This document shows positions 3,685 through 21,408 of a DNA stretch of 36,535 bases, piece by piece. This DNA comes from Deltaproteobacteria bacterium (GTDB taxonomy: Bacteria > Desulfobacterota > Syntrophobacteria > Syntrophobacterales > Syntrophobacteraceae). Position 1 is the first letter of the stretch. Each line of letters starts with the position of its first letter. The notes beneath the pieces were generated by a model. It saw only the letters and a program-made list of their open reading frames with translations. It was not told the DNA's origin and ran no database searches. The stretch is taken from contig JAJYDE010000041.1 in the NCBI GenBank assembly GCA_021777755.1, positions 1 to 36,535 on the forward strand. The letters run 5' to 3'. The position numbers and the translations under genes were made by a program.

Positions 3685-6538
3685 TGCCACTGCCCTCCAC
3701 CCGAATCACAAGCATCGGCACCATCTCGGGATAGGCCTGGGCCTTCTGATTAAGCTGCTCCTGGAAGCTTCGTTCCTCTTGCGCGAGAAGGTTCAGACGA
3801 TGGTTGCGGACCTGCTGCAGTCCAAGCCGCCCGATGGTCTTCCGGCGTGCTGCGAAGGCGTAGTCCGCCTTCTCGCGTTCGCGTGCCACACGGACCCGGT
3901 GTTCCTGAACGAGGGTTTCGTAGATAGGCTTCCCGTGTTCCTCCGCCGCTTTCCGCAGCTTTGCGAAGATGGATCGGGAGACCTCGGCGTCAAGACTGGA
4001 TCGAACCTGGATGCTTGCCGCGAGGCTTTGGTCCCACACGTGTCTGGCTGTAGGCATATAGACCATGCCGTTATCGGCCAGGAAGAGGGGCATGATCCTT
4101 CGCCGGTTCCACTCCATGGTCGCAATCGCAATTCGCCACAAGGACCAGACGCCCTGGACTTCACTGGAAAGTCCTGGAATCGACACGATAGGGACCGGCT
4201 GGCCTGGTGCAAAACGGGGGAGCCGCATGGCCAGACCGCGTACCTTCGGCTCTTCCAGGGTGAGATGACGGGCCGCTGGAAACTTTTCAGCCTCCTTGGC
4301 CGTAAAGACCACGTTGTCGTAGGTTTCGCCATCGGGCCAGGTGAGGTTCCAGCCCTGACTTCTCCTCTCAGCTTGGCCGCCGTGCGCCTTCAGGTAGCTC
4401 ACGGTCATGCGCTCGACCCAATGTGGCAAGGGGTGAGTCAGCAGCCGCTGGGCTTCGCAAAGCTCCAGGTCCTCGGTTACACCGAGCACGGAGGCGGTCG
4501 TCCGCGCTTCGCGGGCCTGCTCCTGCAAACGGACGACCACTCCCTCCACCGAGTCCTCCGCCCTCTCGGGGTTGAGAAGCGCCTCGACATACATTTCGTC
4601 GAACATCCTGCCGGCCTGGGCAGAATCGAGGACATCGCCGGTCTTGTCGATGCCGAACTCCTCGAAAATGACGGCGAGTTTTTTCTCCAATACTTCCCGG
4701 ACCCGGTGCTCGACCGAATCCTCGAAGACGAAGTTGACAGCACGGACGATATGAGATTGTCCGATGCGATCCACCCGGCCGATCCGCTGCTCGAGACGCA
4801 TTGGGTTCCAGGGGATGTCGTAGTTGATCACCACGTGGCAGAACTGGAGGTTCAAGCCCTCCCCGCCGGCGTCGGTGGAGATGAGAATACGGGCATCCCT
4901 AGCGAAGGTCTCTTGCACGCGCTTACGTTCTTCCATGTCCATGGAGCCGTTCAGGCAGACGACCGAGAACCCGCGCTCAGTCAGGAACCGTCGCAGCATC
5001 TCCTGGGTAGGCACGAACTCGGTGAACACCAACGCCTTGAGCTCCGGGTCGCCTTCTTCAGCTTGAAGGCGGTAAAGCCAGTCGAGCAGCACCTCGGCCT
5101 TGGCGTCCGGACCGCTCAGCTCGCAACGGGCCGCGGCCTCCAGCAGCAGCGTGACCTCGGCGCGCTCGTTTTTGAGCGCTTTGAGCCGGGTGCGAAGCAA
5201 TACTTCTATCTGCTCCTGGCCGTCCAGGTCCTCCCATTCCTCCTCGGAGGCAACCGGAAACAGGGTCAGTTGCTCCAGGGGCGCGGCGAGCACTTCGAGC
5301 CGCCTTTCGAGCGTGGTGCGGATGGCGCTGGTGCTGGAAACCACCAGCCGCTGCATCAGGATCATAAGAAAGCCGATGTAGCTCCGCTTTTCCCGCAGGG
5401 CCTGGTTGTAGCCCTCACGGACGTATTCGGTGACCGCCTCATAGAGGAGCTGCTGAGCGCGGTGACGCTCTTCCCAGGAAACCGGGCCAAGCTGCGTCCG
5501 GCGGGGCTTAAACAGCGGCTTCCCTTCAGCGTCAATGGCATGGCGCTTCTCGGTGCGGATCACATGCGGCTGGACCCGCTCACGGGTAACGCTGCCGATG
5601 TCCGGGAATTCCTCTGCGTCGATCAGTGACACCAGCCGGTGAAAGGCGTCGGTCTTACCCTGGTGCGGTGTAGCCGAAAGCAGCAGGAAATACGGCGCGG
5701 CTTCGGAGAGACCCTGGCCCAATTTGAAACGTGCCACCTGGTCGGTGCTGCCACCGAGACGATGAGCTTCGTCCACGACGATCAGGTCCCAGCCGGCGGA
5801 GAGGAGATCCTCGAAGCGTTCGCGGTTGTACTCGCCAACTTGAGCAGCGCTCCACCCACGGCGCTTGTCCAGGGGTTTGACCGAATCCATCGGCACGACG
5901 ACCTGTGAAAAGAGAGTCCACGAGTTGCGGGTTGCGAGCTGTGAATCTTCAGCACCCGGAACTCTGAACTCGTAACTCGGAACCGCCGAAAGGCGGCTCA
6001 GCGTTTTGATATCTTCGGGCAAGACAAGTTGGAAAGATTCATTGAAGTGGGTCCGCATTTCGGCTATCCACTGGCTCACCAGTCCTTTCGGGGCGATGAC
6101 CAATGTCCGTTTGACCAGTCCGCGGAGCTTGAGCTCCCGCATGATGAGACCGGCCTCAATGGTCTTGCCCAAGCCGACCTCGTCCGCCAGTAGATAACGT
6201 ACCCGGTCTCTGGCGGTGGCGCGGGACAAAGCCCGAATCTGGTGGGGCAGCGGGATGACGGAGGACTCGATAGGCGCGAGCAGCACATCCCGGGTAAGTG
6301 CGTCGGCCACCCGAGCGGCGGCGGCGACGTAGGCGATATGGTCCGGCGCGTTGGCGCCCGCGCTCTCCAGAGACTTGAGCCTGGAAGCCGGGATGCGGAC
6401 CACGGAGTCGCGGCCGGGCAGCCAGACGCGGCAGACAGTCTCTCCCCAAAGAGACTGAGTTTCGATGACCTGACAGAGTTGCCCATGGTCAGGGCTATAG
6501 TACCACAAATAGTCGCTTTCAAATTTCGCTAGAATCAT
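3677..6538 (-). CDS. brxHII: BREX-3 helicase BrxHII (SNF2/HepA-like)
   Basis: This 953-residue superfamily 2 helicase is of the RapA/HepA/SNF2 type, as expected for the type 3 BREX helicase BrxHII. Motif I is LADEVGLGKTIEAGL (Lys about 125), motif II is VVDEAHRLGG (DEAH about 256-259), motif III is LLLSATPHQGKTD and motif VI is QRIGRVDRIGQ, with NLQFCHVVINYDIPWNP before it. A long helical C-terminus follows. All ATPase motifs are intact, so it should couple ATP hydrolysis to movement on DNA. It begins by ATGA overlap with the RNA ligase gene and ends inside the pglZ start. Residues about 187-206 are an odd insertion encoded by a short degenerate tandem repeat (5920-5983). Confidence 0.9.
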   Translation of the reverse strand: MILAKFESDYLWYYSPDHGQLCQVIETQSLWGETVCRVWLPGRDSVVRIPASRLKSLESAGANAPDHIAYVAAAARVADALTRDVLLAPIESSVIPLPHQIRALSRATARDRVRYLLADEVGLGKTIEAGLIMRELKLRGLVKRTLVIAPKGLVSQWIAEMRTHFNESFQLVLPEDIKTLSRLSAVPSYEFRVPGAEDSQLATRNSWTLFSQVVVPMDSVKPLDKRRGWSAAQVGEYNRERFEDLLSAGWDLIVVDEAHRLGGSTDQVARFKLGQGLSEAAPYFLLLSATPHQGKTDAFHRLVSLIDAEEFPDIGSVTRERVQPHVIRTEKRHAIDAEGKPLFKPRRTQLGPVSWEERHRAQQLLYEAVTEYVREGYNQALREKRSYIGFLMILMQRLVVSSTSAIRTTLERRLEVLAAPLEQLTLFPVASEEEWEDLDGQEQIEVLLRTRLKALKNERAEVTLLLEAAARCELSGPDAKAEVLLDWLYRLQAEEGDPELKALVFTEFVPTQEMLRRFLTERGFSVVCLNGSMDMEERKRVQETFARDARILISTDAGGEGLNLQFCHVVINYDIPWNPMRLEQRIGRVDRIGQSHIVRAVNFVFEDSVEHRVREVLEKKLAVIFEEFGIDKTGDVLDSAQAGRMFDEMYVEALLNPERAEDSVEGVVVRLQEQAREARTTASVLGVTEDLELCEAQRLLTHPLPHWVERMTVSYLKAHGGQAERRSQGWNLTWPDGETYDNVVFTAKEAEKFPAARHLTLEEPKVRGLAMRLPRFAPGQPVPIVSIPGLSSEVQGVWSLWRIAIATMEWNRRRIMPLFLADNGMVYMPTARHVWDQSLAASIQVRSSLDAEVSRSIFAKLRKAAEEHGKPIYETLVQEHRVRVAREREKADYAFAARRKTIGRLGLQQVRNHRLNLLAQEERSFQEQLNQKAQAYPEMVPMLVIRVEGSGNE
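5920..5983. repeat. Degenerate tandem repeat translated within brxHII
   Basis: On the minus strand this stretch repeats the theme GAGTTCCGAGTTACGAGTTC, with variants such as AGAGTTCC and CGCAACTCG. It encodes the peptide SYEFRVPGAEDSQLATRNS in the helicase between motifs Ia and II. Such GAGTTNCGAGTT strings are usually found as short intergenic tandem repeats, and here one copy is kept in frame. The flanking codons (RLSAVP before, LFSQVVVPMDSV after) read like ordinary helicase sequence. Confidence 0.6.
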
Positions 6539-7224
6539 GCCCTGGTTTCCATCCGCAACCGATTGGCTTTGATGCCAGAATGTGTCCAGTGCCGTTCAAC
6601 TGCTTGAATAAAGGCAGGACGAACCAACTTGGCTCTCTGAACCAGCCAGTCGCCTTGGTCGAAGCGAAGATAAAGACCCTCTGCCGGTCTATCGCCGAGT
6701 TGTGACTGCGATAGGAGTTCACTCAGTTTCGCAAGCGTGAAATGACCTTGATCCACTTTTGGTACTTGAGAGATACCAAGCGCCCGAAAAATCTCGTCTC
6801 GGCGGGTGCAGGAGAAAAAACCATCGGTGTTTTTTTCGTAAATATCGAATCCCAAAAACCAGTCTGGCAATCGGTCATAGACGACCGAGTGCTGTGCATA
6901 GCACCATTCCCCGAAAAGAATGTAGCGGTCGGTCAATTGTTCGAAAAGCTCGTCAGTTCTTCGAGCCAGCCAGTCAGCGAGCTTTTTCCATTGCCCCGTA
7001 CTTGGAAGAGGCAAATACGCCCCTCTATTTTGGGCACGGATATTCCCCTCGGCGTCAAAGGAGAGCCCCAGATTCGCTCCGTCCACCTTTTCTTCAACGA
7101 CGAGTTCATGTCGAAGGAATTCATTTCGGTCGAATTCCGACATGACTTTGTCCCCCCTGACTTCAACCTCACCAAGAAGCGTCAAGTGTGAAGTGGAGGG
7201 AAATTTGAAAAAATCGTCTTTCAC
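6535..7224 (-). CDS. RNA ligase family protein embedded in BREX operon
   Basis: This 229-residue covalent nucleotidyltransferase is of the ATP-dependent RNA ligase (Rnl2-like) type. Motif I is EEKVDGANLGLSF with the adenylated Lys at about 46. Motif III is ILFGEWCY (104-109), motif IIIa is DWFLGFDIYEK (121-131), motif IV is AEGLYLRFD (Glu 182, Arg 187) and motif V is VQRAKLVRP (Lys 199). All motifs needed for ligase-AMP formation are present. There is almost nothing C-terminal to the core, so no extra domain is available for specific RNA recognition. It probably seals 3'-OH/5'-phosphate RNA breaks. ATGA overlaps join it to the PIN-like gene upstream and to brxHII downstream, so all three are translationally coupled. 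Its presence in a BREX operon is unusual to my knowledge. Confidence 0.8.
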   Translation of the reverse strand: MKDDFFKFPSTSHLTLLGEVEVRGDKVMSEFDRNEFLRHELVVEEKVDGANLGLSFDAEGNIRAQNRGAYLPLPSTGQWKKLADWLARRTDELFEQLTDRYILFGEWCYAQHSVVYDRLPDWFLGFDIYEKNTDGFFSCTRRDEIFRALGISQVPKVDQGHFTLAKLSELLSQSQLGDRPAEGLYLRFDQGDWLVQRAKLVRPAFIQAVERHWTHSGIKANRLRMETRA

Positions 7225-7754
7225 GCGCCCGTCTTCTTCGCATACTTTGCCCTGGCATAATCAGGACACAGGAAATGCACGGTAATCCCGACCTCGGCCA
7301 AGGCGCCCTTCCATCCCCACCATTTGCTGTCCGTCGCCTGTAAGACCGGCGGTTTACCCGGATGGGCGTTCGAGACAGCGATGAACTTCCGATCTGAGTT
7401 ATCGAACCGGGCCAAACCCTCATGATCAGGGAATTCGTGGTATGACTCGCCGTTTTTTGTAATCGCAACGCGATCCGCCTCTGGAAACTTCCACCGATTG
7501 TCATGGACCCACTTCATGAATTGGTCCCCCATGCCAGGCTGACCCTTCAGCGAGAGTTGTTGCCGATATTCGTCAAAGATTTCATACCCGGCATCCATAA
7601 CCAAGCCGCCTTTCTTCATGATATGTTCGACAGCTTCAACACAAGCCAGAACGCAGCCGGTCAACTCTCGCGGTATCGTCGCCGGAGCAAGGGCAAGATT
7701 TGCAGTTTTCGGCACATTGGTATCGACCAGGTACTTTTTGGGCAGGCCGTTCAT
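7221..7754 (-). CDS. PIN-like (probable RNase) protein
   Basis: This 177-residue protein opens with KKYLVDTNVPKT, the classic first strand and catalytic aspartate of a PIN domain (Asp 11). Further candidate metal ligands are Glu 40 (ACVEAVEH), Asp 118/121 (FDNSDRKFIAVS) and Asp 142 (QATDSKWWGWKG), in the order and spacing PIN domains use. This fits a Mg-dependent endoribonuclease. No antitoxin-like gene is adjacent; its neighbours are an ABC-type ATPase (its ATG overlaps that stop by 4 nt) and an RNA ligase (4-nt overlap). I infer that the ATPase controls the nuclease and that the ligase repairs or limits its damage. The substrate is unknown. The fold call rests on motifs only; similarity outside them is weak. 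Confidence 0.65.
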   Translation of the reverse strand: MNGLPKKYLVDTNVPKTANLALAPATIPRELTGCVLACVEAVEHIMKKGGLVMDAGYEIFDEYRQQLSLKGQPGMGDQFMKWVHDNRWKFPEADRVAITKNGESYHEFPDHEGLARFDNSDRKFIAVSNAHPGKPPVLQATDSKWWGWKGALAEVGITVHFLCPDYARAKYAKKTGA

Positions 7755-9157
7755 TCAGAAACCTCCACTTCGCCGCCGTTTTGGCGCAGGCGCTTTTTCA
7801 TCGCCGCTTTTGACTGTTCCGTGATGTCTCCCATCTCATCGCCGAAGAAGTTCTCCGGCCAGTTGCGGATGTTTCCAAAGAGGTCAATTTGCAACGGTTC
7901 CAGAGTAGCAGGAGTCCTGGTTATGTTGGCGAAGTAGGCGGACACATTTTCTTTTGGCACGATATCTTCGGCAATTCGGCGTTGCAGTCGCCGTAAAAAA
8001 TGCTCGGAGTGGGTTTCTATAATTAACTGGATGTTCCTGTCAGCGCCATTTTCTCTGGAGTTGACGACATCGAGCATCACATCGGCCAGCGCCGACTGGG
8101 CATTCGGGTGCAGGTGAATCTCCGGCTGCTCCATGAGTATAATCGACCCTCGGGGTGCGTAAAAACACTGAACCAGCACTGGTAGCACCTGGGAAATACC
8201 AAAACCAACGTCAGGGAGATCCACCCAGTCCTTCGATCCTCTGGTTCGCACCTTGACTTCATACTCCTGCCGCTGTTCTGAGATAGGATTGACCTTGAAC
8301 TCCTCGATCAACCCCATTTCCTTAAGCTTGAGCGCAATAATCTCTTCGAAGGGCTTGGCCGGGCGCTTGTAGCCGAGACTAATTTTTCGGCTTCGAGCAG
8401 CCAGTATGGCCGCCACGGTGTTTTCACCGGCATAGCCGACACTTTCAGGCTCGATACCTGTCCATGAGTACAACCGCTCGGTCTTGATGCGAAGTGGGCC
8501 AAGGTAATTAAGTAAGCCGAAAAGTTTTTCATGACGCAAATTTAGTGCCTGAACGAAATCTGCGTTCTGATAGTAGGCAACCACCTCGTCGGGGAAACCA
8601 TAAAAACGAACCGGCGCACCAGGAGACCAGGCCCGGCCTTGTTTCCTTCTTAGTGAGTATTTTTCGGCTTCAACTTTGTATTCGGCTTTAGTTCCGGACT
8701 TCCGTTCCATTCCAATGGAGGCTCTTGGTTTGTCCTTGAGGATCAGTTGGTACTTGAGGTGATCCAGAACCAAGGAACGTTGCTCTTTGTCTCCTAAGCC
8801 AACGCCAGCTTCAAAAGAGAGGGTGTCGCCAGAAAAGATCTTACCGGAAACCGGGTCTTTAAACCTTAACGTATCTTGAAAATCCCATTGGTATTCGAAG
8901 GAGATCTTATTAGAAGGGTTATGGTGAAAAACCATTTCTTGATAGGAGCCGAGTTGAACCGCCGAGTTTTTTCCACCTGGATAGAAGACTGCTTTTCGGT
9001 CCGGGGATTCAACGGTCTGCTTCAACATCATCAAAAATTGTCCGATGCTGGATTTACCTGAACTGTTCGCACCAAAGAACAAGGTAATCGGAGCCATGCG
9101 GATGTTCCCGGTGTCTTTCCATATTTTAAAATTTTGTATCCGCAATCGCTTTAACAT
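7751..9157 (-). CDS. DUF3696 AAA/ABC-type ATPase
   Basis: This 468-residue protein belongs to the OLD/RecF-like group of ABC-type ATPases that carry DUF3696. It begins MLKRLRIQNFKIWKD. Walker A is FGANSSGKSS (29-37). The C-terminal lobe has the Walker B/D-loop stretch SIILMEQPEIHLHPNAQ, preceded by a signature-like DVGFGISQVLPVL, and the switch histidine region LIIETHSEHFLRRLQRR. No nuclease domain is fused, so it probably acts as a sensor or regulator for a partner, here the PIN-like protein. The longer frame starting at 9286 runs into pglXI. The start at 9157, 2 nt after the pglXI stop, is the natural one. Related ATPases pair with toxic effectors in other defence systems, which supports a sensor role by analogy. 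Confidence 0.85.
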   Translation of the reverse strand: MLKRLRIQNFKIWKDTGNIRMAPITLFFGANSSGKSSIGQFLMMLKQTVESPDRKAVFYPGGKNSAVQLGSYQEMVFHHNPSNKISFEYQWDFQDTLRFKDPVSGKIFSGDTLSFEAGVGLGDKEQRSLVLDHLKYQLILKDKPRASIGMERKSGTKAEYKVEAEKYSLRRKQGRAWSPGAPVRFYGFPDEVVAYYQNADFVQALNLRHEKLFGLLNYLGPLRIKTERLYSWTGIEPESVGYAGENTVAAILAARSRKISLGYKRPAKPFEEIIALKLKEMGLIEEFKVNPISEQRQEYEVKVRTRGSKDWVDLPDVGFGISQVLPVLVQCFYAPRGSIILMEQPEIHLHPNAQSALADVMLDVVNSRENGADRNIQLIIETHSEHFLRRLQRRIAEDIVPKENVSAYFANITRTPATLEPLQIDLFGNIRNWPENFFGDEMGDITEQSKAAMKKRLRQNGGEVEVSE

Positions 9158-9159
9158 CT

Positions 9160-11961
9160 CTAGTCGCCTCCCATTCTTGTTACTGCCTGGTCGTACCACA
9201 TGAGGAGCTTGGGGTCTTCCTGGAGGACGTTCTCGGAAATTTTGCCAGCGACCGTAACGATGGTGGCGTAGTCGCGTTCCTGCCACGCCTTCTTGAAACC
9301 GGCGCGGACAGCCTCAAGGCGGAATACCTTCAGACGCTTCTGGCTGGACGTTCGGTAATCCTCAAACTCCTTGAGCAGCGACCGATCGCGCAGCTTCTCC
9401 AGGTCCCCGGCTTTGTTCGGGTCGGGCACATACCAACGGTCATGGGCTTTGGCGACAAGGGTTGGATTGTCCTTGGGCAAGTTCCTCAGGTCTTTCCAGT
9501 TGGTTGAGAGGTAGGCGTGGATTTGCTCGGGAACTGGGCCTTTGCCGTCGTAGCGGAGGAAATTCTGCTCCAGCATCAATGAAAGTTCGATAGGCTTCTC
9601 GTGCCGAGACCAGGTGGTGAGTCGTAAAAACAAGGGCGTCAGGTCCTGGAGCGTCTGTGGCTTGATTTTCAGTTGTTGCCGCAGCCACCGGAGCGTTGAT
9701 ACTTCATCAAAGGGAATACCCTCAAGTTGACCAAGCTCTTTGACTTTTTCGCGCCAGCGGACATAGTCCATTACCTGCTCGGAGAGAAACCACATATCGT
9801 CACGACTATCGAAAATGCTTTTTTCAGTATTCAATCCCAAAGAAAATTCCGCTGCGGAGAGGGGCACAAGAAAGCCACGCTGTACATGGAACGCAACCAT
9901 CAAATCGTAGAGTCGGTGTTCCAAGCGCTCGGCAATGAGCTCCGGCTTAGCCGCACTCTTCGGTATCACCGGGAGTTGCCGAAGATGAGTCCGGACGAAA
10001 TCCCAAGCGCCCTCTTCGGTACCCGCTTCCAGCGCGAATCTCTCTTCGAGGCCATCGTTGGGCTTGTACGTGGAGACGACAAGATCTTCTTTCATGGCGG
10101 CGCTGGTCACTTGCCGGTAAGACCCCTGTTGTTTGTTGAGCGTCGTGACACTGGCGACGACAAACCCTGCGGCGGTCAAGGCTTCCTGGATGGCAACCCA
10201 TACAGAGTTGTGGGAATTATGGAACACCACCGTCATCCAACGGCCAGGCTTGAGCACTCGGTAATACTCTGCAAAACAGCGCTGCATAAGGCGCTGGTAC
10301 TCAGGGAGGCCCTTTTTCTTAAATTTATCGACAATCGCCTCGGGCGTAGTGTTGGTAATGACCCGGTGCCATGATTCCACCAGAAAGTTCAGATCGGCGT
10401 AGTAGATGTTTTCGCCGAAGGGAGGGTCGGTGAAGATGTAGTCAACGGAAGCTACGGGTAACCCCAAGGTTGCGGCGGTCCGCGTGGTAACGACAGCATT
10501 ACTGTCTCTCGAATACCTGGTGGTGAAAGCTTGAATTAGTCGCCCCAGTTTTCCCACAAGAATGTACCAAGGGCTGCATTCAGCGTGCTGGGAGGCGACA
10601 TAATAAACGCCACTCAGGTATTGATTTACTTGGGAGAAATGTGTTGGGGTATAACGTGCCAGTACTGACATGCCCCAGATTGCCTGCTCCACAAAGTACA
10701 ACAACATACTCCTGGTCCGAGGCTCTGAGTGGATATTCGCCTTCCGCCACAGGACAGCCAAGGCCTGCACGGCACGGGGGAGAAAGAGTTGGTGGATATT
10801 GGAGAAGCCCTTCGGCTCGATCCGTGAGCCGTGATACATCTGTTCGATGGGAAAACGATTGGTAGGGACCTCAGAAGGCAGGGGTAGCCGGGCGATGCGG
10901 CCAAGCAGGGCAAGATCCGCCTCGTCGGGTTGCTTCTCATACTTATGTCCATTGGCAATATAGGATATCAAACAAGGCTGGAATTTTACCCGTTTCCATG
11001 TTCCAGCACCGGAAGGATCTACGGTCGATTCAAAGACCCGCTCCAAATTGTCCTTTTTTAGTTCTGCATCGCAGTGGGGGCAAGGAAAAATATCCCTCAC
11101 CCGCTTGGTCTCTGCATCAAAAGCTTCATTCATGAAGACCACTTCGCCTGCGCAGTCAGGGCAGGTGAAAACCTCACTCCAGACAGTGTATTCAATGCGA
11201 CCTTTGGACTTGCCGTCGGTGTGGAGGGTCTCGTACATCCAGCCCAGTTCCTGCTCGACTTCGTCGAGGAGACGCTTGCCGGCTTGGGCAAAGGCTTGAA
11301 CATCAAAAGGCAGGTTATAGTTGGCCGCTATGAAGGTTGCTGCCGGTGCTAAATCATTGAGCACAACGCGTCGGGCTCCCCATTGGGGTTTTCCCCGTCC
11401 TTCCTGAGCCCATTCCGCTTCCAAAGTGCGACGGTACTCTCCCGGTGCCGCGCCGCACCACTGGGCGGCAACTCCGGTCATTCCAGAGCCACAGAAGCCG
11501 TCAAGCACAACATCTCCGGGTTCGGTATAGTGGAGAATAGAAGGCACTATGGCCAGATGCGGCACTTTGGTGTGATAGGAATGCGCCCTGTAGAGAGCAT
11601 GGGTTTTGCCCTCGCTGGTATCGACCGCAAAGGGTTCCCGGTGGTAAGGACCGCTTGCAGGGTTCTCCAATTTCTGTGTTTCCCACTCTTTGATAAAATC
11701 ACCTAGCCAGGGATTCGGGCAGGCGGTGTAGTAAGGAGGATCGGAGAGAGCGAGAATGTCTTCGTCTGCCCCCAACGGGAAGCCTTCGCTCGTGCGGAAT
11801 TCAGGGTCCTGGAGCTTCTCACTCAGTTTCTCGGTAAAATACTTGCGGCGTTCCTCATCGCTGGCGAAGGTAAGGCCCAGGCATTGGACTGGGCGAGACA
11901 ATGAAGTGCTCTGGTCATCCGTGGAAAACAGACCACCTTGTCTGTAAGGTAAGTTGTCCAT
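9160..11961 (-). CDS. pglXI: BREX-3 DNA adenine methyltransferase PglXI
   Basis: This 933-residue site-specific DNA methyltransferase carries a catalytic DPPY near its N-terminus (LALSDPPYYTACPNP, about 74-77) and the SAM-binding motif VVLDGFCGSGMTG (about 154-160). A further DPPF lies in YIFTDPPFGENIYYADL. Two CxxC pairs (FTCPDCAGE and FPCPHCDAE) suggest a zinc ribbon in the middle. The order is of the permuted type, with the catalytic motif before the SAM motif. In BREX the PglX enzyme marks host DNA so that it is spared. The start at 11961 has GGAAGGGAAG upstream; the longer frame to 12165 overlaps sfsA and lacks such a site. It follows sfsA by 34 nt. Confidence 0.87.
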   Translation of the reverse strand: MDNLPYRQGGLFSTDDQSTSLSRPVQCLGLTFASDEERRKYFTEKLSEKLQDPEFRTSEGFPLGADEDILALSDPPYYTACPNPWLGDFIKEWETQKLENPASGPYHREPFAVDTSEGKTHALYRAHSYHTKVPHLAIVPSILHYTEPGDVVLDGFCGSGMTGVAAQWCGAAPGEYRRTLEAEWAQEGRGKPQWGARRVVLNDLAPAATFIAANYNLPFDVQAFAQAGKRLLDEVEQELGWMYETLHTDGKSKGRIEYTVWSEVFTCPDCAGEVVFMNEAFDAETKRVRDIFPCPHCDAELKKDNLERVFESTVDPSGAGTWKRVKFQPCLISYIANGHKYEKQPDEADLALLGRIARLPLPSEVPTNRFPIEQMYHGSRIEPKGFSNIHQLFLPRAVQALAVLWRKANIHSEPRTRSMLLYFVEQAIWGMSVLARYTPTHFSQVNQYLSGVYYVASQHAECSPWYILVGKLGRLIQAFTTRYSRDSNAVVTTRTAATLGLPVASVDYIFTDPPFGENIYYADLNFLVESWHRVITNTTPEAIVDKFKKKGLPEYQRLMQRCFAEYYRVLKPGRWMTVVFHNSHNSVWVAIQEALTAAGFVVASVTTLNKQQGSYRQVTSAAMKEDLVVSTYKPNDGLEERFALEAGTEEGAWDFVRTHLRQLPVIPKSAAKPELIAERLEHRLYDLMVAFHVQRGFLVPLSAAEFSLGLNTEKSIFDSRDDMWFLSEQVMDYVRWREKVKELGQLEGIPFDEVSTLRWLRQQLKIKPQTLQDLTPLFLRLTTWSRHEKPIELSLMLEQNFLRYDGKGPVPEQIHAYLSTNWKDLRNLPKDNPTLVAKAHDRWYVPDPNKAGDLEKLRDRSLLKEFEDYRTSSQKRLKVFRLEAVRAGFKKAWQERDYATIVTVAGKISENVLQEDPKLLMWYDQAVTRMGGD

Positions 11962-11995
11962 AGATTCTTCCCTTCCGTGATCCACAAGAGAAACG

Positions 11996-12703
11996 CTAAT
12001 AGCGAAACGGCAGAAGTTTGGGCCTCTCAAAACCTTTGGCGCGGACTCCTGCGGCGACCGCAAAAACCTCAACGCCTGAGGCATAAGCTTCTTTGAAAGC
12101 TTCGGCATACGCTCGGGAATGTTTCCCATTGATGGTGAAGACCTCCGCGTCTCCTCGCTGCACAACGTAGAGCAACACGGCCCTCTCCCCGGCGGCAGCT
12201 TTGCGAGCCAACCACCGAAGTTGCTTTACACTACGAGGTGTGACTGAATCAGGAAAACGAGCAACTCCTTCTTCAACAACCGTGGCGCTCTTCACTTCCA
12301 CGAAGCAATTTCCTCCTGGACCGGTAAGCACAAAATCAACGCGCAAACCCTCTTCGACGCGCCGCTCCCTCTCCAGTGTCTCATAGTGAGCCAGCCCTGG
12401 CACCAGCCCTTGACTGAGGACCTCTTCCGCGAGGAGGTTAGAAAAATTTGTATCAGTCCCTATCCAAAAGCCATTAAGCTCAACCGCTCTCAGGGTATAG
12501 CGTCGCTTCCGCTTGGGATCTCGACTATCCCAGAGAAGAGCAGGGCTGCCAGTCTGCAGACAACCGGCCAGAGAGCCAGGATTCGCGCAGTAGGCTAGAG
12601 TTCTCGTGCCATCTGCCAAAACCATGTCCGCCAAAAAACGTTGCGGTCGCGCCATGAAAACAGCTTTGTACTGTGGCTGAGGAAAGGGGAGAAAAGAACT
12701 CAA
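11996..12703 (-). CDS. sfsA: SfsA family DNA/RNA nuclease inside BREX operon
   Basis: This 235-residue protein has normal SfsA length. The N-terminal part QRFLADMVLADG and CANPGSLAGCLQTGS matches the OB-like half of the family. The C-terminal half is a PD-(D/E)xK-type core with Asp 123 (RVDFVLTG) and FVEVKSAT (Glu 136, Lys 138). SfsA was first linked to sugar-fermentation stimulation but is now annotated as a nuclease. It lies between the YhcG-type nuclease and pglXI in one operon, a position that suggests a defence role rather than a house-keeping one (inference). The start is a TTG at 12703 with AGGAGAGG 7 nt upstream; the next ATG would remove residues before the family core. Confidence 0.87.
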   Translation of the reverse strand: MSSFLPFPQPQYKAVFMARPQRFLADMVLADGTRTLAYCANPGSLAGCLQTGSPALLWDSRDPKRKRRYTLRAVELNGFWIGTDTNFSNLLAEEVLSQGLVPGLAHYETLERERRVEEGLRVDFVLTGPGGNCFVEVKSATVVEEGVARFPDSVTPRSVKQLRWLARKAAAGERAVLLYVVQRGDAEVFTINGKHSRAYAEAFKEAYASGVEVFAVAAGVRAKGFERPKLLPFRY

Positions 12704-12872
12704 ATAGAACCTCTCCTACCCCTGTTAAACAGGCGCTGTTGGGTCATCCTTTCTTCCGCATGCTTCAATTTCCTCAAAGCTCTCTATTGCCGCCCTTGAT
12801 TTCCCTCAACTCAGAACCGCAACCTCGTCACAAACAAAGTGTGACCAAGTGGCCGCTTGGACGGGGCAGAAC
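12704..12872 (-). other. 169-nt spacer with two small inverted repeats
   Basis: This is the longest gap in the BREX operon. It contains the near-palindrome CCTGTTAAACAGG (12721-12733) directly upstream of the sfsA ribosome-binding site, and a 6-bp stem GTCACA/TGTGAC (12827-12845). Either could shape mRNA processing or mark an old insertion point. No convincing promoter or gene is seen. Confidence 0.4.
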
Positions 12873-14045
12873 TTAGTCACTATCTTGGTCTCTGTTGTCC
12901 TCCGGACTCTGCCTCTCTTCAATCAACCGTCGTTCCCGCTCCAGTTCGAGCCGGAGTTCCTCTTCGGTCGGCAGATAGAGCATGTACTTGGAAGCAAAAA
13001 GCTGTTTGCTTTCGTTCAGCACGGAATAACGAGCGATGGTTTCGTTTTTCTTTGCGCAGAGAATAAGGCCGATGGTCGGGTTGTCGCCTTCCGTGAGGTA
13101 TTTGTCATCGAACATCCGGATATAGCTGTCCATCTGTCCGACAGCCTGATGAGTCAACTCGCCAATCTTTAGGTCAATCAACAGGTAGCATTTCAGAATA
13201 CAGTTGTAGAAAACCAGATCGATATAAAAATAGTGGTCATCGAACTGCATGCGTTTCTGTCGACCGACGAAAGCGAAGCCCTTACCGAGTTCAAGTAAAA
13301 ACGACTGAAGGTTATCGATAATCGCCTTTTCGATTTCCGACTCATGCAGAACCTCAGAATCCGGTAATCCAAGAAAATCAAGAATATAGGGATTTTTAAT
13401 AGTGTCGGAGGGAATGCCTATTTTCTGTCCCTGACAAGCAAGTTCCATGACTCCCGCTTTATCACGGCTCTTGAGAAGCCTTGCAAAGAGGAAGGTATGT
13501 ATCTGACGGTTGAGGTGTTCGACATCCCATCCTTCATTCTCTGCTTCGATCTCATAGAAAAAACGTTCATTTTGATTCGTGACATTCATCAAGGTCCGAT
13601 AATGTGACCAGCCCAAATTGGGCGAGAACCCTCGCTCGGCGCCGGCTTGTTGGACCGCCAACTCCATGACATCCAAAACGCCACTTTGAGGGTGGCGTTT
13701 TCCGGAGGCTTTGAATTCGCCACAGGCGATGTGGCGAATCTCAGGGATGCGGTCGGAATAGACCGTGTAAAAAGTTCGGAAATAGCGCAGGTTAGTGGTG
13801 GAAAAACCGCGCCCGTACTTATGGCTCAACTTTGCGGAAAGCTGTTCTATTACCTGCTTGCCGTATTCGGCACGCTCATCCCCGCCCTGAAGCTCCTGAA
13901 CTATTTCACGCCCGATGAGCCAATAGGCGATGACCATATTGTTGTTGACAGACCGCACAACATTGGCACGCGCTTGTTCAAGAATAGAAACAACGCGATC
14001 AAAGAGATCGTTACCCTTCGGCTGCGTAAGTCCGTTTGTATCCAT
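12873..14045 (-). CDS. DUF1016/YhcG-type PDDEXK nuclease
   Basis: This 390-residue protein has the two-domain YhcG layout: an N-terminal DUF1016 helical region (NNMVIAYWLIGREIVQ and the FSTTNLRYFRTFY helix) and a C-terminal PD-(D/E)xK nuclease. Catalytic residues are probably Asp 276 (YFYIDLVFYN) and LIDLKIG (Asp 291, Lys 293), with Gln 299-304 (HQAVGQ) after them. The C-terminus is charged and likely helical. Such proteins are common near restriction systems. It starts 2 nt after the brxC stop, so it is part of the operon. Residues about 101-124 are encoded by two perfect 10-bp hairpins (13675-13739), a sign of inserted or repeat-derived DNA. Its target is unknown. Confidence 0.87.
   Translation of the reverse strand: MDTNGLTQPKGNDLFDRVVSILEQARANVVRSVNNNMVIAYWLIGREIVQELQGGDERAEYGKQVIEQLSAKLSHKYGRGFSTTNLRYFRTFYTVYSDRIPEIRHIACGEFKASGKRHPQSGVLDVMELAVQQAGAERGFSPNLGWSHYRTLMNVTNQNERFFYEIEAENEGWDVEHLNRQIHTFLFARLLKSRDKAGVMELACQGQKIGIPSDTIKNPYILDFLGLPDSEVLHESEIEKAIIDNLQSFLLELGKGFAFVGRQKRMQFDDHYFYIDLVFYNCILKCYLLIDLKIGELTHQAVGQMDSYIRMFDDKYLTEGDNPTIGLILCAKKNETIARYSVLNESKQLFASKYMLYLPTEEELRLELERERRLIEERQSPEDNRDQDSD
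13675..13739. repeat. Two adjacent perfect hairpins inside the YhcG-type gene
   Basis: Hairpin 1 has arms AAAACGCCAC (13675-13684) and GTGGCGTTTT (13692-13701) with a 7-nt loop. Hairpin 2 has arms ATTCGCCACA (13715-13724) and TGTGGCGAAT (13730-13739) with a 5-nt loop. Both share the core CGCCAC/GTGGCG. They lie in frame in a variable part of the coding sequence. Confidence 0.75.
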
Positions 14046-14047
14046 GC

Positions 14048-17000
14048 TTACTCCAACACGATCCGAACTTTGCCTGGCTCCTTGCCCTTGGTGAGCCCGT
14101 CCAGATATTCCTCGAAGCGTTTCCTCATCTCCGCCGGCGTGGCTGGTGAGCCGCCGGAAAGAAGGGCGTCGCGCAGGTCCGCGATCTTGACTGAGACCTT
14201 GGCGAGCCCGGAAAGCACCTCCTGCAGTGCGTGGATGAAGTCCTGGTCCAAGTCGTCCGGCAGGGTTCGCTTCTTGATGAAGCCGTCAACCAGCTTTCGC
14301 GGCTCGGGCCTGAGCAGGCTCAGATTGCCCTTGGTGGTCGGGTCTTCAAGGTTGGCGAGCAGCGTCTGCGTCCAGTTTTCGACCAACTTATCGAGTTCGC
14401 CGTCCAGGGCGTCCAGCATCGTCGCCGCGGGAGCCGTGGGCGGTTCCACGGCCGGTTTGAAGTTGCAGTGCGGGCAGACCGGCGAGGCCTCCAGTTCCTG
14501 TTCGGTGAGCACGAAGCAGCTCTTCAACCCCGCGAGCCGGTTCTGGAAGTCGGAAAGGTGCTGACGAGGCATCAGGTCGATAGTGGAGAGCTTCTGCAGG
14601 TCCTTGAGCCGCTCGTCGCCTATGAGCTGGGCCTTGCGCTTGTCCTCGTTCACTCCCAGGCGCGCTTTTACATGCATGGCCAGGTAGGCCGGCAGGTAGG
14701 CCTTCTTGAGATCCCCGAGTCGACGCCGGGTCTGCTGGCGGAATGCCGCGGCGCTACGTTTGGCCGGGTCGCAGAGCTGGGCGAGGACCTCGTCCCGCGC
14801 AGTCTCCATCTTTTCGATCCACCCGTTGCCGGTGGGCAGGACCGCCTCGGCGGTGGAAAAGTATGCGGCTGTGGACCCGAGGTCTATCACCAGTTCTTCA
14901 AGCGCTTTGATCTCGACAAGAGAATTGAGCCCGTCCCGATGCGCCGTTACCTCCGAGGCGTCGTAGCGGAAGTTTTTAAGCTTGCCGGTCGTGGTGTAGG
15001 CCTGTAGGGATTCGAGGAAAATCTTGGTCCCATCCAGCCTGGCGCGCAGTTTCTTGATTTCGTCCTCGGCCAGCAGGCCGCGGCCCCAGAAAAACAGCCC
15101 GGTCTGCAAGCTCCGCTGAACAAGCACGAGCCGTTCCACGGTGGTGGTGACAGCCTTCTGCAGCTCCTGGACCGGCTCGTCCTTGCCCTGGGTAACCAGT
15201 TGGGCCATTCCAGGTGTAACCCCGAGCAGCTCGAAAAGCGCCCTGAGCGCCGGAAGGTTCCAGTCCTTGGGTCGTTCGATGTGTTTGAACTGGGCCAGTT
15301 CGTCGATACCGGTCCCGGCCAGTTGCGCCAGACCCGTGGCATCAAACTTCTTGCCCGGAATCGAGAGGACTGCCTCGCCAACATATAGCAGCGCGGCCAG
15401 CACCACCACGGCCCATTCGGGTTCGAGCCGTAGGGATTGCGGTGCGAGGTACTCCACGCCGAGGACGTCCTGAATCAACTCGGAGCGGTTGACCACCTGG
15501 CCGTGCCCCTTCTTCTTTGCGACGCCGAGGATGTGCTTGGCGTACTTGGACCGGTAGGGATCGAGCCGCTCACCGTCGAGAAGCTCAAGCGCGTCGAGCA
15601 CAGCCGTTGCCTGCTTGGTGCGAGTCTGTCCGGCTATGGCACGGAGGGCGTCCTGCGCTGCCTGTGCCCGGTTGGTCCCGGTGATGAGCACTGAGAAGAA
15701 GGGGTACTCCGGGGCCTGGTCCTGAAAATGGGTCCCAAGACAAAGGCCGGAGATAGTGTTCACCAAGTCGCGGAAGTTGAGGCGCTCATGGGAGCCGATT
15801 CCCGAAAGCTCGCGGATGGACTTGCCCTTGGCCCATTCAGTCAGGGACTTGGCGCGCCCCTGGTAGGTGACCTCGAAAGCCGTGGTCATGTTCTTCTGCA
15901 GCCATTGCACCAGGTCGCGCAGGAAGTTCGAAGCCTTCGATTCGTAGGTGGACTTGGCGTTGCCTGAGGCAGTGGATGCAAGGTCCAGGGCCGCGGAGTA
16001 GCTCTTGACCGCGGTCCGGAATTCCTCGTCCGCGTTTGTCAGTCGCAGGAACAACTCGTCGGGTTTCTTCTCATCCTTGAAGTGCGGCACGTCGAAGGGT
16101 TGGATAAAGTAAACGTAGAAATCCCGCGGCGGTACAACCGTGGAGCGTTCGTTGGGCGCGCCGAAGAACAAGTATCCAAGACGCGCGGCCTTGCGCTCCA
16201 GCCATTCGAGTTCGTGCCGCCAGATTTTGTAGCCGGTGACGTAGGTCTGATCGGTGCACTCCATGACCCGTTTGAGGGCCTCATAGTAGTAACGGTCGAG
16301 CTGCGAGGAATCGAGACTTTCGGCCCGCTTCTCAATCAAGGCGTCGAAGTCGTCGGTCTTCTTGAGGTCCAGGTAGTACTGGCGGTTGTCAGGGTTGGAT
16401 GAAATGAACTGCCCGCTGACCGTCTTGTGGATTTCCCGCAGGACAGTCTCCACCTGAGAGAGCAGGTCGTCGGCCGGATCGCCGCCCAACTCCTCAATGC
16501 CCGGTTGGAAGAGGCACAAGCCGTCGCGCAGTTCCTCAGCCGTCGCGCCCATTGTTGCGTAGATGTCGCCGGTGGTGAGCCGGTGGACCGAAAGCGCGTG
16601 GATGAGCCGGGTGGCCATGGGTTTGTAGGCCGGACGAGTGAAGGCCTGCTGGATGCGCGACTCGAGCACCAGGCTGCAATCTATGACTGCCTTGATGTCC
16701 GGGACCGCGCGGAAGGACGGGTTCTCACGCAAGGTCGTCCAGTAGCCATCATAGGCGATGACCCCGGGGCGGTCGTTGGGGACGTTCTGGCCAAGGAGCT
16801 TCTTCATGGCCAAAGACAGAGTCTTGAGAACCTCGCGTTTTTCCACTGCCGTGACCCGCTCGAAGGTATCGATATAGTCGGGATGCACGGGAAAGAGGCG
16901 CACGAACTCGTCCATGCGCTCATTCATGCGGCCGTAGAACTTGGCGAAAGGAGTCAGGTACTCCCGGATTTTCACCTGCTGTTCTCCAGTCTTTTTCAGC

Positions 17001-17776
17001 AAGCGCTCTGCCACAACGAATTTAACGTCCTTACGAGCGATAAGAACTTGTTCGAAGCGATCCTTCACCCGGCGAATGCTGTCGGCCACGAAAGAGAAGC
17101 GAGGGCTGTCAAAAATGGCTTCTTGTACTCCAGCGATAAAGCGGAATCGCAGGTCTTTGCAGACCTCGCCGATTTCGCGAAGGAAATTTAGGTCGAGGAT
17201 CAACTCTTGATCTTTGCGCGTGCGCAGGTAATCGAGCAACTCGTCCACCACCAGGAGCAGACCATAGTCGGGATACTCTTGGTGGAAGGCGCTCATCATA
17301 TCTTCGAAGGCGCCTTTGTTGTTGGCCACCTTGTCCGCGGGCGGGAAGGAATAAGACGCGCCAATTGCAGCCAGGTACTCTTCCAGTTCGGCCACGAGAA
17401 TGTCGCGCAGTGACATGGTCGTGGCGCCTATTTCGGTCCGGACCACCTTGAAGCGGCCACTGATCTTGGCTGCGGCAGTCGCCACGCGCTCGTCGTTCAG
17501 GAGGGTCGCCAGATTGGCGTTTTCGGCCAGAGCGGAGATCACGGACATGAGGTGCGACTTACCAATACCGTAGTTGCCGACGACCAGCAGCCCCTTGTTA
17601 TCCATGGATTGCTCGAACTGGAGCTGAGGTATGACAAGATTGACCAGCTTTTCGGCCATCTCCTCGGAGATGACGTAGGTCTGGACAAGTTGCCGGGCCG
17701 CAGCGGCCTCGTCGGCATCCCGCAACTGAACCACGGACTCGATAGGTTCGAACTGGATCAGATCTTCGTACCTCAT
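14048..17776 (-). CDS. brxC: BREX ATPase BrxC (PglY-like)
   Basis: This protein of about 1242 residues is the large P-loop ATPase of BREX. The N-terminus [20 protein letters not shown] is characteristic. Walker A is [13 protein letters not shown] (Lys about 73) and Walker B is [13 protein letters not shown] (Asp-Glu about 178-179). A CPHCNF element after PVC near residue 1120 may be a small metal site. BrxC is thought to assemble with PglZ/PglX in exclusion and methylation. I chose the ATG at 17776 over 17791 because it has GGGGA 8 nt upstream and matches the usual family start; 17791 has no clear ribosome-binding site. It follows brxF by about 25 nt. No disruption is seen. Confidence 0.9.
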
Positions 17777-17801
17777 TATGGTTGTCCCCATACGGAATCG
17801 T

Positions 17802-18278
17802 TCATAACACAGCCTCCGGGCCGACTATGAGCAAATCTCGCAGTGAATATCGTCTGTATTCAGGGTGGCCTGGCGATGCATAGTTAATGTATTCGCCGCC
17901 AGCGGACCCACTCCAAGCTGCGACGATTGTCCTATTGCGAGAAATCCCCTGCAGCAGCCTGAGCGGATCTTGTTTGAGAAAGACATCGAATAGCACTTCT
18001 ATGTTATCTAGAAGAGCAACCTCACCCTGTTGTGAATTTACGATCTCGGACAGCAGGCGAGGCAATTGAAGTGTCCGTTGGCGTTCCGTGAGATCCAGCA
18101 TACGTCGCGACAATTCAAGATTGACATTTACCAGTGGGGCATTTGTGCGTTCGCTGACATGCCGAAGCGCAGCGGTCTTGCCTGCTCCGGCAGGCACCAC
18201 CACCAATAAGAGCCGATGATAGAGCTCGACAGCTTGTTCGATCATCAGGATTATTTTTTCCGCGAGCGGCTCCGCCAT
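17802..18278 (-). CDS. brxF: BREX-3 P-loop protein BrxF
   Basis: This 158-residue small ATPase is the marker protein of type 3 BREX. Walker A is [13 protein letters not shown] (Lys about 34). A Walker-B-like strand [13 protein letters not shown] follows near residue 90, and [13 protein letters not shown] resembles a sensor region. The start ATG overlaps the stop of the upstream HTH gene by one base (TAATG), so the two are coupled. Its position directly before brxC is the published type 3 order. The biochemical role of BrxF is not known in detail. Confidence 0.87.
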
Positions 18279-18484
18279 TATCGCTCTTCTCCCGAGCCAG
18301 GCACGATCGCCCGCGTTTCCTCAAGCCAGTGGTCAATGGCTCCCTTCCGGAAACGCCAGTGGCGACCGATCTTCTGGGAGGGGATCTTGCCTTCCCTGAC
18401 GAGCTTGTAGAGCGTCGATTTTGGTATCTTCAGGTAGGCGGCCAACTCTTCGATGGTCAGGACATCGCCAGATTTATCATCCAT
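18278..18484 (-). CDS. Excisionase/MerR-type HTH DNA-binding protein
   Basis: This 68-residue protein is essentially one winged helix-turn-helix of the excisionase (HTH_17) type. It includes LTIEELAAYLKIPKSTLYKL, then the wing REGKIPSQKIGRHWRF, and RKGAIDHWLEET. The frame continues upstream to 18595, but the ATG at 18484 has GGAGAGG 10 nt upstream and gives the usual family length. It is the first gene of the BREX operon, so it could be an autoregulator of BREX or a DNA-directing subunit; both are inference. Alternatively it is a leftover excisionase of a mobile element. Confidence 0.85.
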   Translation of the reverse strand: MDDKSGDVLTIEELAAYLKIPKSTLYKLVREGKIPSQKIGRHWRFRKGAIDHWLEETRAIVPGSGEER

Positions 18485-18545
18485 CACAGGTTTACCTCTC
18501 CGGTCTAAGAGCAAAGTAGCCCCGAATGCTTCATATCGAGCGTGT

Positions 18546-18574
18546 AATTTACAGTTGCTGCTAGTTGCTGGCAA
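18546..18574 (-). promoter_or_regulatory. Candidate promoter of the BREX operon
   Basis: On the minus strand TTGCCA (18574-18569) and TAAATT (18551-18546) are 17 nt apart, a 5/6 and 4/6 match to a sigma-70 promoter. This puts transcription start near 18538, about 55 nt before the HTH start codon. It is the only well-spaced candidate I see upstream of the operon. Confidence 0.4.
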
Positions 18575-18635
18575 GCGTTTTTCGATGTTCCGCAAACCTG
18601 AAAATGTCCTCTTGCGCCTTGACGCTAAAGAGAAT

Positions 18636-18916: not shown

Positions 18917-19363
18917 TTAAAACTCAACACGTTCAGGCGGATTGGTGTAACGCTGGATATAGCGCCGGGAGCGATGGCCAAGACGCCGTTCAAGCTCGTA
19001 GGCATCTGTTCCCGCAACCTTCGCCAGCCGGAACGTAAAGGTATGTCGCAGGTCATGAGGGCGAAGCGGCGATACCTTTCGTTCCTCATCACTTAGCTCG
19101 GCATCGTGCCAGCGTCCAATCCGTTCGAGGATGAGATTGATCGCCCTCGGCGACAGGCGTCCGTCAAATCGACGAGCTGAAACTGTCGAGGCGGAGAGAA
19201 AGAGGGCTTCGCTGCCATTGCCGGCGTCCATGGGTCGCTCGGTTTCGCTGTAGTTCGCCAGGGCCGAGCGCGCGTCGGCCGAAAGAAAAACAGTGCGCTC
19301 CGTTTTTCCCTTCCCCGCAGATATCTGCCGCGCAGCCGCTGAAATCGGTGCGGACGGTCGCAC
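18917..19363 (-). pseudogene. Tyrosine recombinase/integrase, C-terminal fragment
   Basis: This fragment of about 130-148 residues keeps the C-terminal catalytic half of a phage-type integrase. GKGKTERTVFLSADAR is the beta-hairpin with its catalytic lysine region. RPHDLRHTFTFRLA carries the HxxR motif, LGHRSRRYIQRYT contains the box-II histidine region and the Tyr nucleophile region. The N-terminal SAM-like domain and first catalytic Arg are missing: the upstream frame stays open to about 19440 but does not read like integrase. It is therefore a truncated relic. It sits at the promoter side of the BREX operon, where an island integrase would be expected. Confidence 0.75.
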
Positions 19364-20037: not shown

Positions 20038-21408
20038 TCAGCGGGCCAGTTCAAAAAACAGCGCGGCCGCCGATCTGATGCCCCGGTGAAAGTCGTCGAG
20101 GCTGAAGCGTTCGTTGGGGGAATGGGGGCCATCATCGGGACTGCCCCAGCCAAGAAGGAGGATGTTTTCCTGCTCGAGTTGCTCTCTTATCAGGTTGACC
20201 ACGGGAATCGAGCCGCCGTCCCTTTTAAAACGCGGCTTCTTGCCGAAGCCGATCTCGATGGCTCTTTCGGCCGCCCGCATGGCTGAGGTGTTTCTGTTGA
20301 CCAGCACCGGCCCGGCGTGGTGCAGGCCCGCAAATTCGACACTTACCCCGGCGGGGCACAGCTGCCTTACAAATCGGGTAAACAACTGGTCGATTTTTTC
20401 GGGAATCTGGTTTGGAACCAGCCGCATGCTCACTTTTGCCCCCGCTTTAGCCGGTATGATCGTTTTTGCTCCTTCCCCGGAAAAACCGCCCCACAGACCG
20501 TTTATGTCCAAGGTGGGCCGCGCGGTGCTCCGTTCTGTAACCGTATAGCCAGGCTCACCGGCAAACTCGCAAACCCCCAGGTAATTTTTAAGGGCGTCGA
20601 GATCCGAGGGTTGGGCGGCCATCTGCTGTCTTTCCCACTGCTCAAGGGCAAGGACATCATCATAGAAGCCGGGGATGGCTATGGAGCCGTCGGGGTTTTT
20701 TAGTTTTTGCAAAACGTCGGCGAGCACCTGGGCGGGGTTGTGAACGATTCCGCCGAAGCAACCGGAATGAAGGTCGAAGCGCGGTCCCCTGATATCAATT
20801 TGCAGATAACAAAGGCCCCTGAGGGCGTAGGTTATGGCAGGGATCCCCGGGGCAAGCTGTGAAGTATCGGAGATGGCAACGGCGTCTGCTCGCAACTGTT
20901 CGCGATGATCCGCCAGGAATTTGCCCAGGTTCGTGCTTCCGATCTCCTCTTCGCCTTCGGCAAGCACGATCAGATTGATCGGAAGTTCTCCGTTGACGCC
21001 AAGCACGGCCTGAACGGCGTTGATATAGGTTAGCAACTGCCCCTTGTCGTCGGTAGCGCCCCTGGCATAAATATAGCCGTCCCTTATGTCGGGCGAAAAG
21101 GGCGGGGTAAGCCACTCGTCTAGAGGGTCGGGCGGCTGAACGTCATAATGACCGTAGATCAGCAGGACGGGGGCTCCGGGGACTTCGGCGGAGCGGGCGA
21201 GCACCACGGGGTGACGCCCGGTCGGATAAAGGGCGCCGCTAAAGCCGCACTCCTTGAGCTGACGCAGGACCCATTCGGCGGCGGCAAGGACATCGGCTGC
21301 GTGCTCGCCAAGGGTGCTCACGCTCGGTATTGACAGAAACCGGGCCAGTTCGCCCGTGAAAGCTTTCATGTGTTCGTCTATGAATGAACTGATACGATCG
21401 GACAGCAT
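20038..21408 (-). CDS. M20 family metallopeptidase (dipeptidase)
   Basis: This 456-residue zinc peptidase belongs to the M20/ArgE-DapE-carnosinase group. The metal and catalytic motifs are IYGHYDVQPP (His 87, Asp 89), ARGATDDKGQ (Asp 120) and LAEGEEEIGS (Glu 153-155). A dimerisation domain follows, and the C-terminal GWGSPDDGPHSPNERFSL supplies the last ligand. It is most like the cytosolic dipeptidases usually annotated as M20 dipeptidase; the substrate is not predictable. The frame is open to 21825, but the ATG at 21408 has AAGGAGA 8 nt upstream and marks the true start. It is divergent from the DUF482 gene, with a 106-nt shared intergenic region. Confidence 0.92.
   Translation of the reverse strand: MLSDRISSFIDEHMKAFTGELARFLSIPSVSTLGEHAADVLAAAEWVLRQLKECGFSGALYPTGRHPVVLARSAEVPGAPVLLIYGHYDVQPPDPLDEWLTPPFSPDIRDGYIYARGATDDKGQLLTYINAVQAVLGVNGELPINLIVLAEGEEEIGSTNLGKFLADHREQLRADAVAISDTSQLAPGIPAITYALRGLCYLQIDIRGPRFDLHSGCFGGIVHNPAQVLADVLQKLKNPDGSIAIPGFYDDVLALEQWERQQMAAQPSDLDALKNYLGVCEFAGEPGYTVTERSTARPTLDINGLWGGFSGEGAKTIIPAKAGAKVSMRLVPNQIPEKIDQLFTRFVRQLCPAGVSVEFAGLHHAGPVLVNRNTSAMRAAERAIEIGFGKKPRFKRDGGSIPVVNLIREQLEQENILLLGWGSPDDGPHSPNERFSLDDFHRGIRSAAALFFELAR

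What the first reader, a model, noticed from the sequence alone, without database searches (positions are those of the whole stretch)
11996..14045. Two unrelated PD-(D/E)xK nucleases (YhcG-type and SfsA) between brxC and pglXI
SfsA is normally a lone house-keeping gene; here it sits mid-operon in a defence locus next to a DUF1016 nuclease. BREX cores lack an obvious nuclease, so these could add a restriction step to BREX.
Basis: partly seen in the sequence, partly recalled or inferred. Interest (0 to 1): 0.62.

Follow-up and report, generated by a model that had tools for sequence, protein, structure and literature searches.

The report
Nuclease cargo inside a BREX operon
Inside a bacterial anti-virus operon (type III BREX), the space between two core genes is a swappable cargo slot that here holds two DNA-cutting-enzyme genes: one (YhcG) turns up in the same slot of other bacteria, while the other (SfsA, normally a housekeeping gene) was acquired from a distant lineage and has been seen in this position only here.

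Summary
On the minus strand, a complete type III BREX operon carries yhcG (DUF1016_N + YhcG PD-(D/E)XK, 12873-14045) and sfsA (OB + SfsA nuclease domain, 11996-12703) between brxC and pglXI.

The wider picture is a cargo slot. Among 48 other type III BREX intervals resolved at both ends, 9 are empty and most of the rest hold Schlafen-AlbA_2, Fic, OLD ATPase, DUF6602, Mrr, HD or BRO-N genes. YhcG sits directly after brxC in the window and four further loci; these five plus one other form one clade (support 100). SfsA occurs in none of 59 other loci: a singleton.

Best reading: YhcG is a recurrent accessory nuclease of BREX; SfsA is an intact, co-directional, captured xenolog whose defence role is plausible but unshown. 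"BREX lacks a nuclease" is outdated: PglZ is one, and auxiliary nucleases in BREX loci are catalogued. Novelty: SfsA as cargo and the slot-linked YhcG lineage.

The parts
11996..12703 (-). sfsA xenolog: OB fold (SfsA_N) + PD-(D/E)XK domain, TTG start at 12703 behind AGGAGAGG, catalytic RVD...VEVK intact; about 35 nt before pglXI
12704..12872 (-). 169-nt yhcG-sfsA spacer, the only gap over about 40 nt between the genes from brxF to brxA; no sigma-70-like promoter found
12873..14045 (-). yhcG: DUF1016_N + YhcG_C PD-DxK nuclease, member of the clade found directly after brxC in other type III BREX loci
14048..17791 (-). brxC (DUF6079 ATPase), 5' border of the cargo slot; stop codon 2 nt before the yhcG ATG
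9160..11962 (-). pglXI (type III BREX N6-adenine methyltransferase), 3' border of the slot; start at the ATG near 11960
17802..18278 (-). brxF
18278..18595 (-). HTH_17/excisionase-like regulator, also found beside brxF in many relatives
7751..9286 (-). HEC-03B: AAA_15/AAA_21 + DUF3696 ATPase, in the second cargo slot (pglXI-brxH)
7221..7754 (-). HEC-03A partner
6535..7224 (-). RNA ligase (PF09414), third member of the recurring trio
3677..6538 (-). BrxH (SNF2-type helicase; PADLOC BrxHI|BrxHII model, by operon context BrxHII of type III)
1678..3690 (-). pglZ (BREX_PglZ_3)
893..1681 (-). brxA
18917..19363 (-). tyrosine integrase C-terminal fragment at the island edge
20038..21825 (-). M20 peptidase with homologs in all 10 congeners (65-80% identity): ties the contig to this genus and marks the host side of the island

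Best explanation
The brxC-pglXI interval of type III BREX is a cargo slot: accessory effector genes are put in, replaced or lost there while the core operon stays intact. In this genome the slot holds a slot-associated YhcG nuclease and, behind it, an SfsA acquired horizontally from another family. Shown: position, co-direction, intact motifs, xenologous origin of SfsA, recurrence of YhcG at the same junction, exchange of slot content between close core relatives. Inferred: both genes are translated from the BREX transcript. YhcG acts as an auxiliary or backup DNase on invading DNA (DUF1016_N giving DNA or protein contact), much as YhcG accompanies type I R-M operons. SfsA, an OB-fold plus PD-(D/E)XK DNA/RNA nuclease, is an additional nuclease effector of the same kind. 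The SfsA step is the weakest (about 0.35 that it works in defence at all); the confidence given is for the cargo-slot reading with YhcG as its recurrent nuclease.
For: YhcG lies directly 3' of brxC in L248 (72% identity, intact), L259 (82%, nuclease domain lost), L241 (68%, truncated) and L296 (87%, cut by the contig end; preceded by the last ~53 residues of a BrxC). These four plus the window and L295 form one clade, support 100. Slot content varies: of 48 resolved intervals other than the window, 9 are empty, about 20 have SLFN_AlbA_2, 5 Fic, 4 23S-IVP, 3 DUF6602, 3 OLD ATPase, 2 YhcG, one each HD, HATPase, BRO-N and Mrr (some hold two of these), 4 unclassified. The closest core (L066, BrxC 92% identical) carries AlbA_2, and a congener (L260) carries DUF6602. 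SfsA: the window falls with f27/f50/f91/f99 sequences (100/99), apart from the own family's 13-row clade (100/100); no SfsA in 10 congeners; the neighbouring M20 gene shows that the contig belongs to the genus. dN 0.20 and dS 0.70-0.84 between the two copies point to purifying selection. Literature: auxiliary PD-(D/E)XK, Schlafen and OLD-linked nucleases embedded in BREX loci (PMC12839542); a BREX island that also uses type IV restriction for complementary protection is a tested precedent (PMC8565348, title; BrxU named from own knowledge).
Against: SfsA in BREX is a single case; no other locus has it, and no transcript or phenotype is available. Nine empty slots, and two YhcG slots with a lost or truncated nuclease domain, show that the core does not need these nucleases. 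SfsA is preceded by a 169-nt spacer, so it could be a chance insertion. L295 shows that the YhcG clade is not strictly confined to BREX, and strict monophyly of the five slot members is rejected (p-AU 0.02).
Confidence: 0.66

Rival explanations
1. YhcG is real slot cargo but SfsA is a chance insertion: an sfsA gene landed in the operon by illegitimate recombination and is merely tolerated, with no defence role.
For: Singleton among 59 other loci; 169-nt spacer; a related copy in the same genome is already truncated, so such copies do get captured and decay.
Against: Intact ORF with a good ribosome-binding site, intact motifs, same strand, and dN/dS about 0.25 for the pair.
Confidence: 0.4
2. 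The BREX-borne sfsA supplies the ordinary cellular SfsA function to a species whose genus lost its own copy; its location is incidental.
For: No other intact SfsA in this genome; 10 congeners lack SfsA; its relatives sit in housekeeping neighbourhoods with trmJ, ridA, gmk, guaA (names by eye from the sequences).
Against: Ten congeners live without any SfsA; the window/C21 pair sits on a long stem with changes at otherwise conserved positions, e.g. CANPGSL for CPNTGSM.
Confidence: 0.2
3. YhcG and SfsA act together with PglXI methylation as a true restriction step of this BREX.
For: Next to the methyltransferase gene and co-directional; YhcG also accompanies type I R-M operons (L300, L301, L305).
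Against: Core BREX already has the PglZ nuclease (shown for type I, PMC11974810); other loci have an empty slot; the YhcG nuclease domain is lost in L259 although the neighbouring core genes remain.
Confidence: 0.12
4. The arrangement is an assembly or binning artefact of a fragmented draft genome.
For: The genome is in 103 contigs with a 2.84% contamination estimate; the window is a whole contig.
Against: The M20 peptidase on the same contig has homologs in all congeners; gene joins are operon-tight with proper start sites; the brxC-yhcG junction recurs in other genomes.
Confidence: 0.04

Closest known systems
Type III BREX with embedded auxiliary nuclease effectors (Rakesh and Krishnan 2026, PMC12839542)
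   Same: Same core genes; nucleases of PD-(D/E)XK, Schlafen and OLD-linked kinds lie inside or beside the core operon
   Different: The main text of that catalogue does not contain 'SfsA', 'YhcG' or 'DUF1016'; its supplements could not be read here, so YhcG may be counted there under PD-(D/E)XK REases
BREX island with a type IV restriction enzyme (BrxU/GmrSD family; PMC8565348)
   Same: A separate nuclease encoded with a BREX cluster, giving complementary protection
   Different: Different nuclease family; experimentally tested, whereas nothing here is
YhcG/DUF1016 proteins in type I R-M operons (PADLOC PDC-S02; PMC1189080)
   Same: Same two-domain protein; one such operon lies in this very genome (C47, L305)
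   Different: The window YhcG belongs to a clade found after brxC, 42-49% identical to the others aligned here
Housekeeping SfsA (PDB 4DAP, sugar fermentation stimulation protein A)
   Same: Full OB + nuclease domain architecture and EVK motif
   Different: Xenologous, inside a BREX operon, with a changed OB motif (CANPGSL)

Membership tests
Type III BREX | brxF, brxC (DUF6079), pglXI, BrxHII helicase, pglZ (type 3), brxA in one operon | tested here: met
   all six found in order; BREX_PglZ_3 850 bits
Type III BREX | Site-specific methylation and phage exclusion | not testable with these tools
   needs methylome and plating assays
SfsA (TIGR00230/PF03749) | OB fold plus SfsA PD-(D/E)XK domain above curated cut-offs | tested here: met
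   128 and 59 bits (Pfam), 165.7 bits (NCBIfam cut-off 126)
SfsA (TIGR00230/PF03749) | Catalytic D ... ExK motif | tested here: met
   RVDF ... FVEVKS aligned with relatives
Vertical housekeeping SfsA of this lineage | Groups with SfsA of the same family | tested here: not met
   own-family clade (100/100) excludes it; groups with other families (100/99)
YhcG/DUF1016 (PDC-S02) | DUF1016_N plus YhcG_C with D ... (D/E)xK | tested here: met
   133 and 191 bits; YIDLVFY ... LIDLK
YhcG/DUF1016 (PDC-S02) | PD-(D/E)XK fold in a confident structure model | tested here: inconclusive
   mean pLDDT 55.6, not used
BREX auxiliary nuclease effector | Nuclease gene inside the core operon, recurring across loci: YhcG | tested here: met
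   window plus four other loci
BREX auxiliary nuclease effector | Nuclease gene inside the core operon, recurring across loci: SfsA | tested here: not met
   0 of 59 other loci
BREX auxiliary nuclease effector | Contribution to phage defence | not testable with these tools
   needs gene removals and phage plating

The most novel reading that the evidence does not exclude
SfsA has been recruited as an anti-phage nuclease in this lineage: a housekeeping OB-fold/PD-(D/E)XK enzyme turned BREX cargo. Both SfsA copies of this genome lie among defence-type genes (BREX; and an arfB-linked site with an AAA_21-DUF4276 pair), which would make SfsA a new kind of BREX auxiliary effector and offer a function for the otherwise obscure SfsA family.
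Probability: 0.25. Interest if true: 0.58.

Novelty: new variant of a known kind. Interest (0 to 1): 0.4.

Why it matters
If right, type III BREX is a chassis with a definable cargo slot directly after brxC, so accessory effectors could be found simply by reading that slot. The YhcG clade linked to the junction gives an evolutionary test of partnership, and an SfsA in the slot is a natural experiment on what the long-known but poorly understood SfsA nuclease can do.

Tried and rejected
Contaminating contig: rejected because the M20 peptidase on it has homologs in all ten congeners. SfsA as the vertical copy: rejected by the tree. SfsA as phage or plasmid cargo: plasmid hits at most 42% identical and mostly on very large replicons, phage hits at most 37%, no viral-contig relative. 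The genome-contig scan with SfsA gave only three distant relatives. Flanking repeats that would mark an insertion around sfsA: none convincing. Nucleotide similarity between the two sfsA loci ends within the gene (77.8% over 424 nt), so no larger segment is shared. AlphaFold of YhcG with 12 sequences gave pLDDT 55.6 and was not interpreted. AlbA_2 matches in L063 and L089 were discounted, because the seed protein overlaps the brxC tail and those gaps are only about 77 nt.

Full report
What is there. The window is one whole contig of a 4.2 Mb genome in 103 contigs. Its minus strand carries a type III BREX operon in the order HTH_17, brxF, brxC, yhcG, sfsA, pglXI, HEC-03B, HEC-03A, RNA ligase, brxH, pglZ, brxA. 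yhcG starts 2 nt after the brxC stop; sfsA follows after 169 nt, with a TTG start behind AGGAGAGG; pglXI starts about 35 nt after sfsA. No sigma-70-like promoter was seen in 11800-13000, which fits one transcript but does not prove it.

Is sfsA the housekeeping copy? No. A Pfam search finds two SfsA genes in the genome: the window copy, and one on contig C21. Ten congeneric genomes have none, while most other genera of the family have one. In a 58-row tree the own family's SfsA form one clade (100/100), and the window and C21 copies fall elsewhere, in a 100/99 clade with families f27, f50, f91 and f99, where sfsA sits near trmJ, ridA, gmk or guaA. So the window SfsA is a xenolog. The C21 copy lacks its first 63 residues and diverges at its end, but over the shared 152 codons dN/dS is about 0.25, so the two lineages spent much of their divergence under selection. 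The C21 copy's long end branch reflects its damaged end, so branch lengths there should not be read closely.

Is the contig native? The M20 peptidase next to the island has homologs in all ten congeners at 65-80% identity, and an integrase fragment lies between it and BREX. The BREX cluster therefore looks like an island in a genuine contig of this genus; its far edge is beyond the contig end.

The slot. I collected type III BREX loci from the window's phylum (395 genomes), its class (55), another class of the phylum (331), the phylum of an alphaproteobacterial genome (398) and plasmids. Fifty-nine loci with BrxC at least 50% identical could be read past brxC; 48 had both ends of the brxC-pglXI interval. 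Nine are empty, about 20 carry an SLFN_AlbA_2 protein, and the others Fic, 23S-IVP four-helix, DUF6602, OLD-type ATPases (one with TOPRIM, others with separate partners), Mrr_cat, HD, HATPase, BRO-N or YhcG genes; four are unclassified. Classification is by similarity to a few seeds profiled with Pfam, so single counts are approximate. Content does not follow the core: the BrxC nearest to the window's (92%, L066) has AlbA_2 beside it, and a congener (L260) has DUF6602. A second variable gap lies between pglXI and brxH.

YhcG in the slot. A search of the loci with the window YhcG found L248 (intact, 72% identical), L259 (82%) and L241 (68%) directly after brxC. A whole-genome search added L296 (87%), directly after the last residues of a BrxC remnant at a contig end, and L295 (71%), which is not beside BREX genes on its short contig. 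These six form a clade with support 100. Five of the six are in the slot, although strict monophyly of those five is rejected (p-AU 0.02), so the lineage has moved at least once. The other YhcG aligned, 42-49% identical, lie in several settings including type I R-M-like operons (L300, L301); the genome's own second YhcG lies in a type I R-M-like operon as well (L305). In L259 an internal deletion has removed the nuclease domain and left the start and the last residues, so the nuclease looks dispensable to the operon.

SfsA in the slot. A profile of 58 SfsA sequences found no SfsA ORF in any of the collected loci. The window case stands alone. The case for function rests on intactness, direction and selection; the case against rests on its being unique.

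Mechanism. Established elsewhere: PglZ of type I BREX is a metal-dependent nuclease that contributes to defence (PMC11974810), and BREX loci of all types carry auxiliary nucleases that the authors read as auxiliary restriction factors or backup suicidal effectors (PMC12839542). I therefore read YhcG as such an auxiliary nuclease. SfsA is possibly another, with the alternatives that it is tolerated or does its ordinary cellular job.

Novelty. BREX with embedded nucleases is known. A YhcG clade tied to the brxC 3' junction, and SfsA as cargo, were not found in the papers searched: no paper in the library holds both BREX and SfsA, and the main text of PMC12839542 names neither SfsA nor YhcG, although its supplements could not be read. 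I rate it a new variant of a known kind, of moderate interest.

Noticed in passing
window 6535-9286 (-); also L204 347-2995 (-), L207 14043-16677 (+): A HEC-03B ATPase / HEC-03A / RNA-ligase trio occupies the pglXI-brxH gap here and in two other type III BREX loci. An RNA ligase beside an OLD/PARIS-like ATPase pair suggests repair or control of an RNA-cleaving effector; HEC-03A's activity is unknown.
   Followed up: partly
L091 7171-10670 (contig C21); congener loci L307-L317: The second sfsA overlaps an arfB (RF-1 domain) gene followed by an AAA_21-DUF4276 pair and a partial arfB copy. Congeners carry many partial arfB copies (residues about 28-141) near arfB, some beside TIR-like ORFs (recognised by eye in L311, L313): a possible arfB-linked insertion hotspot for defence genes.
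   Followed up: partly
L259 7368-7907 (-): A slot YhcG with an internal deletion that removes the nuclease domain but keeps DUF1016_N and the last residues (RDQNSD).
   Followed up: partly
L305 (G000 contig C47), 313-9274: The same genome has a type I R-M-like operon with its own, distant YhcG (28% identical).
   Followed up: no
window 20038-21825 (-): The M20 peptidase ORF is 595 aa here, but in most congeners the first ~128 residues match a separate piece with stops: fused or frame-shifted relative to kin.
   Followed up: no
L298 4898-8897 (-): A YhcG gene lies near a HEC-03A/HEC-03B pair outside BREX, so the two cargo types occur together elsewhere too.
   Followed up: no
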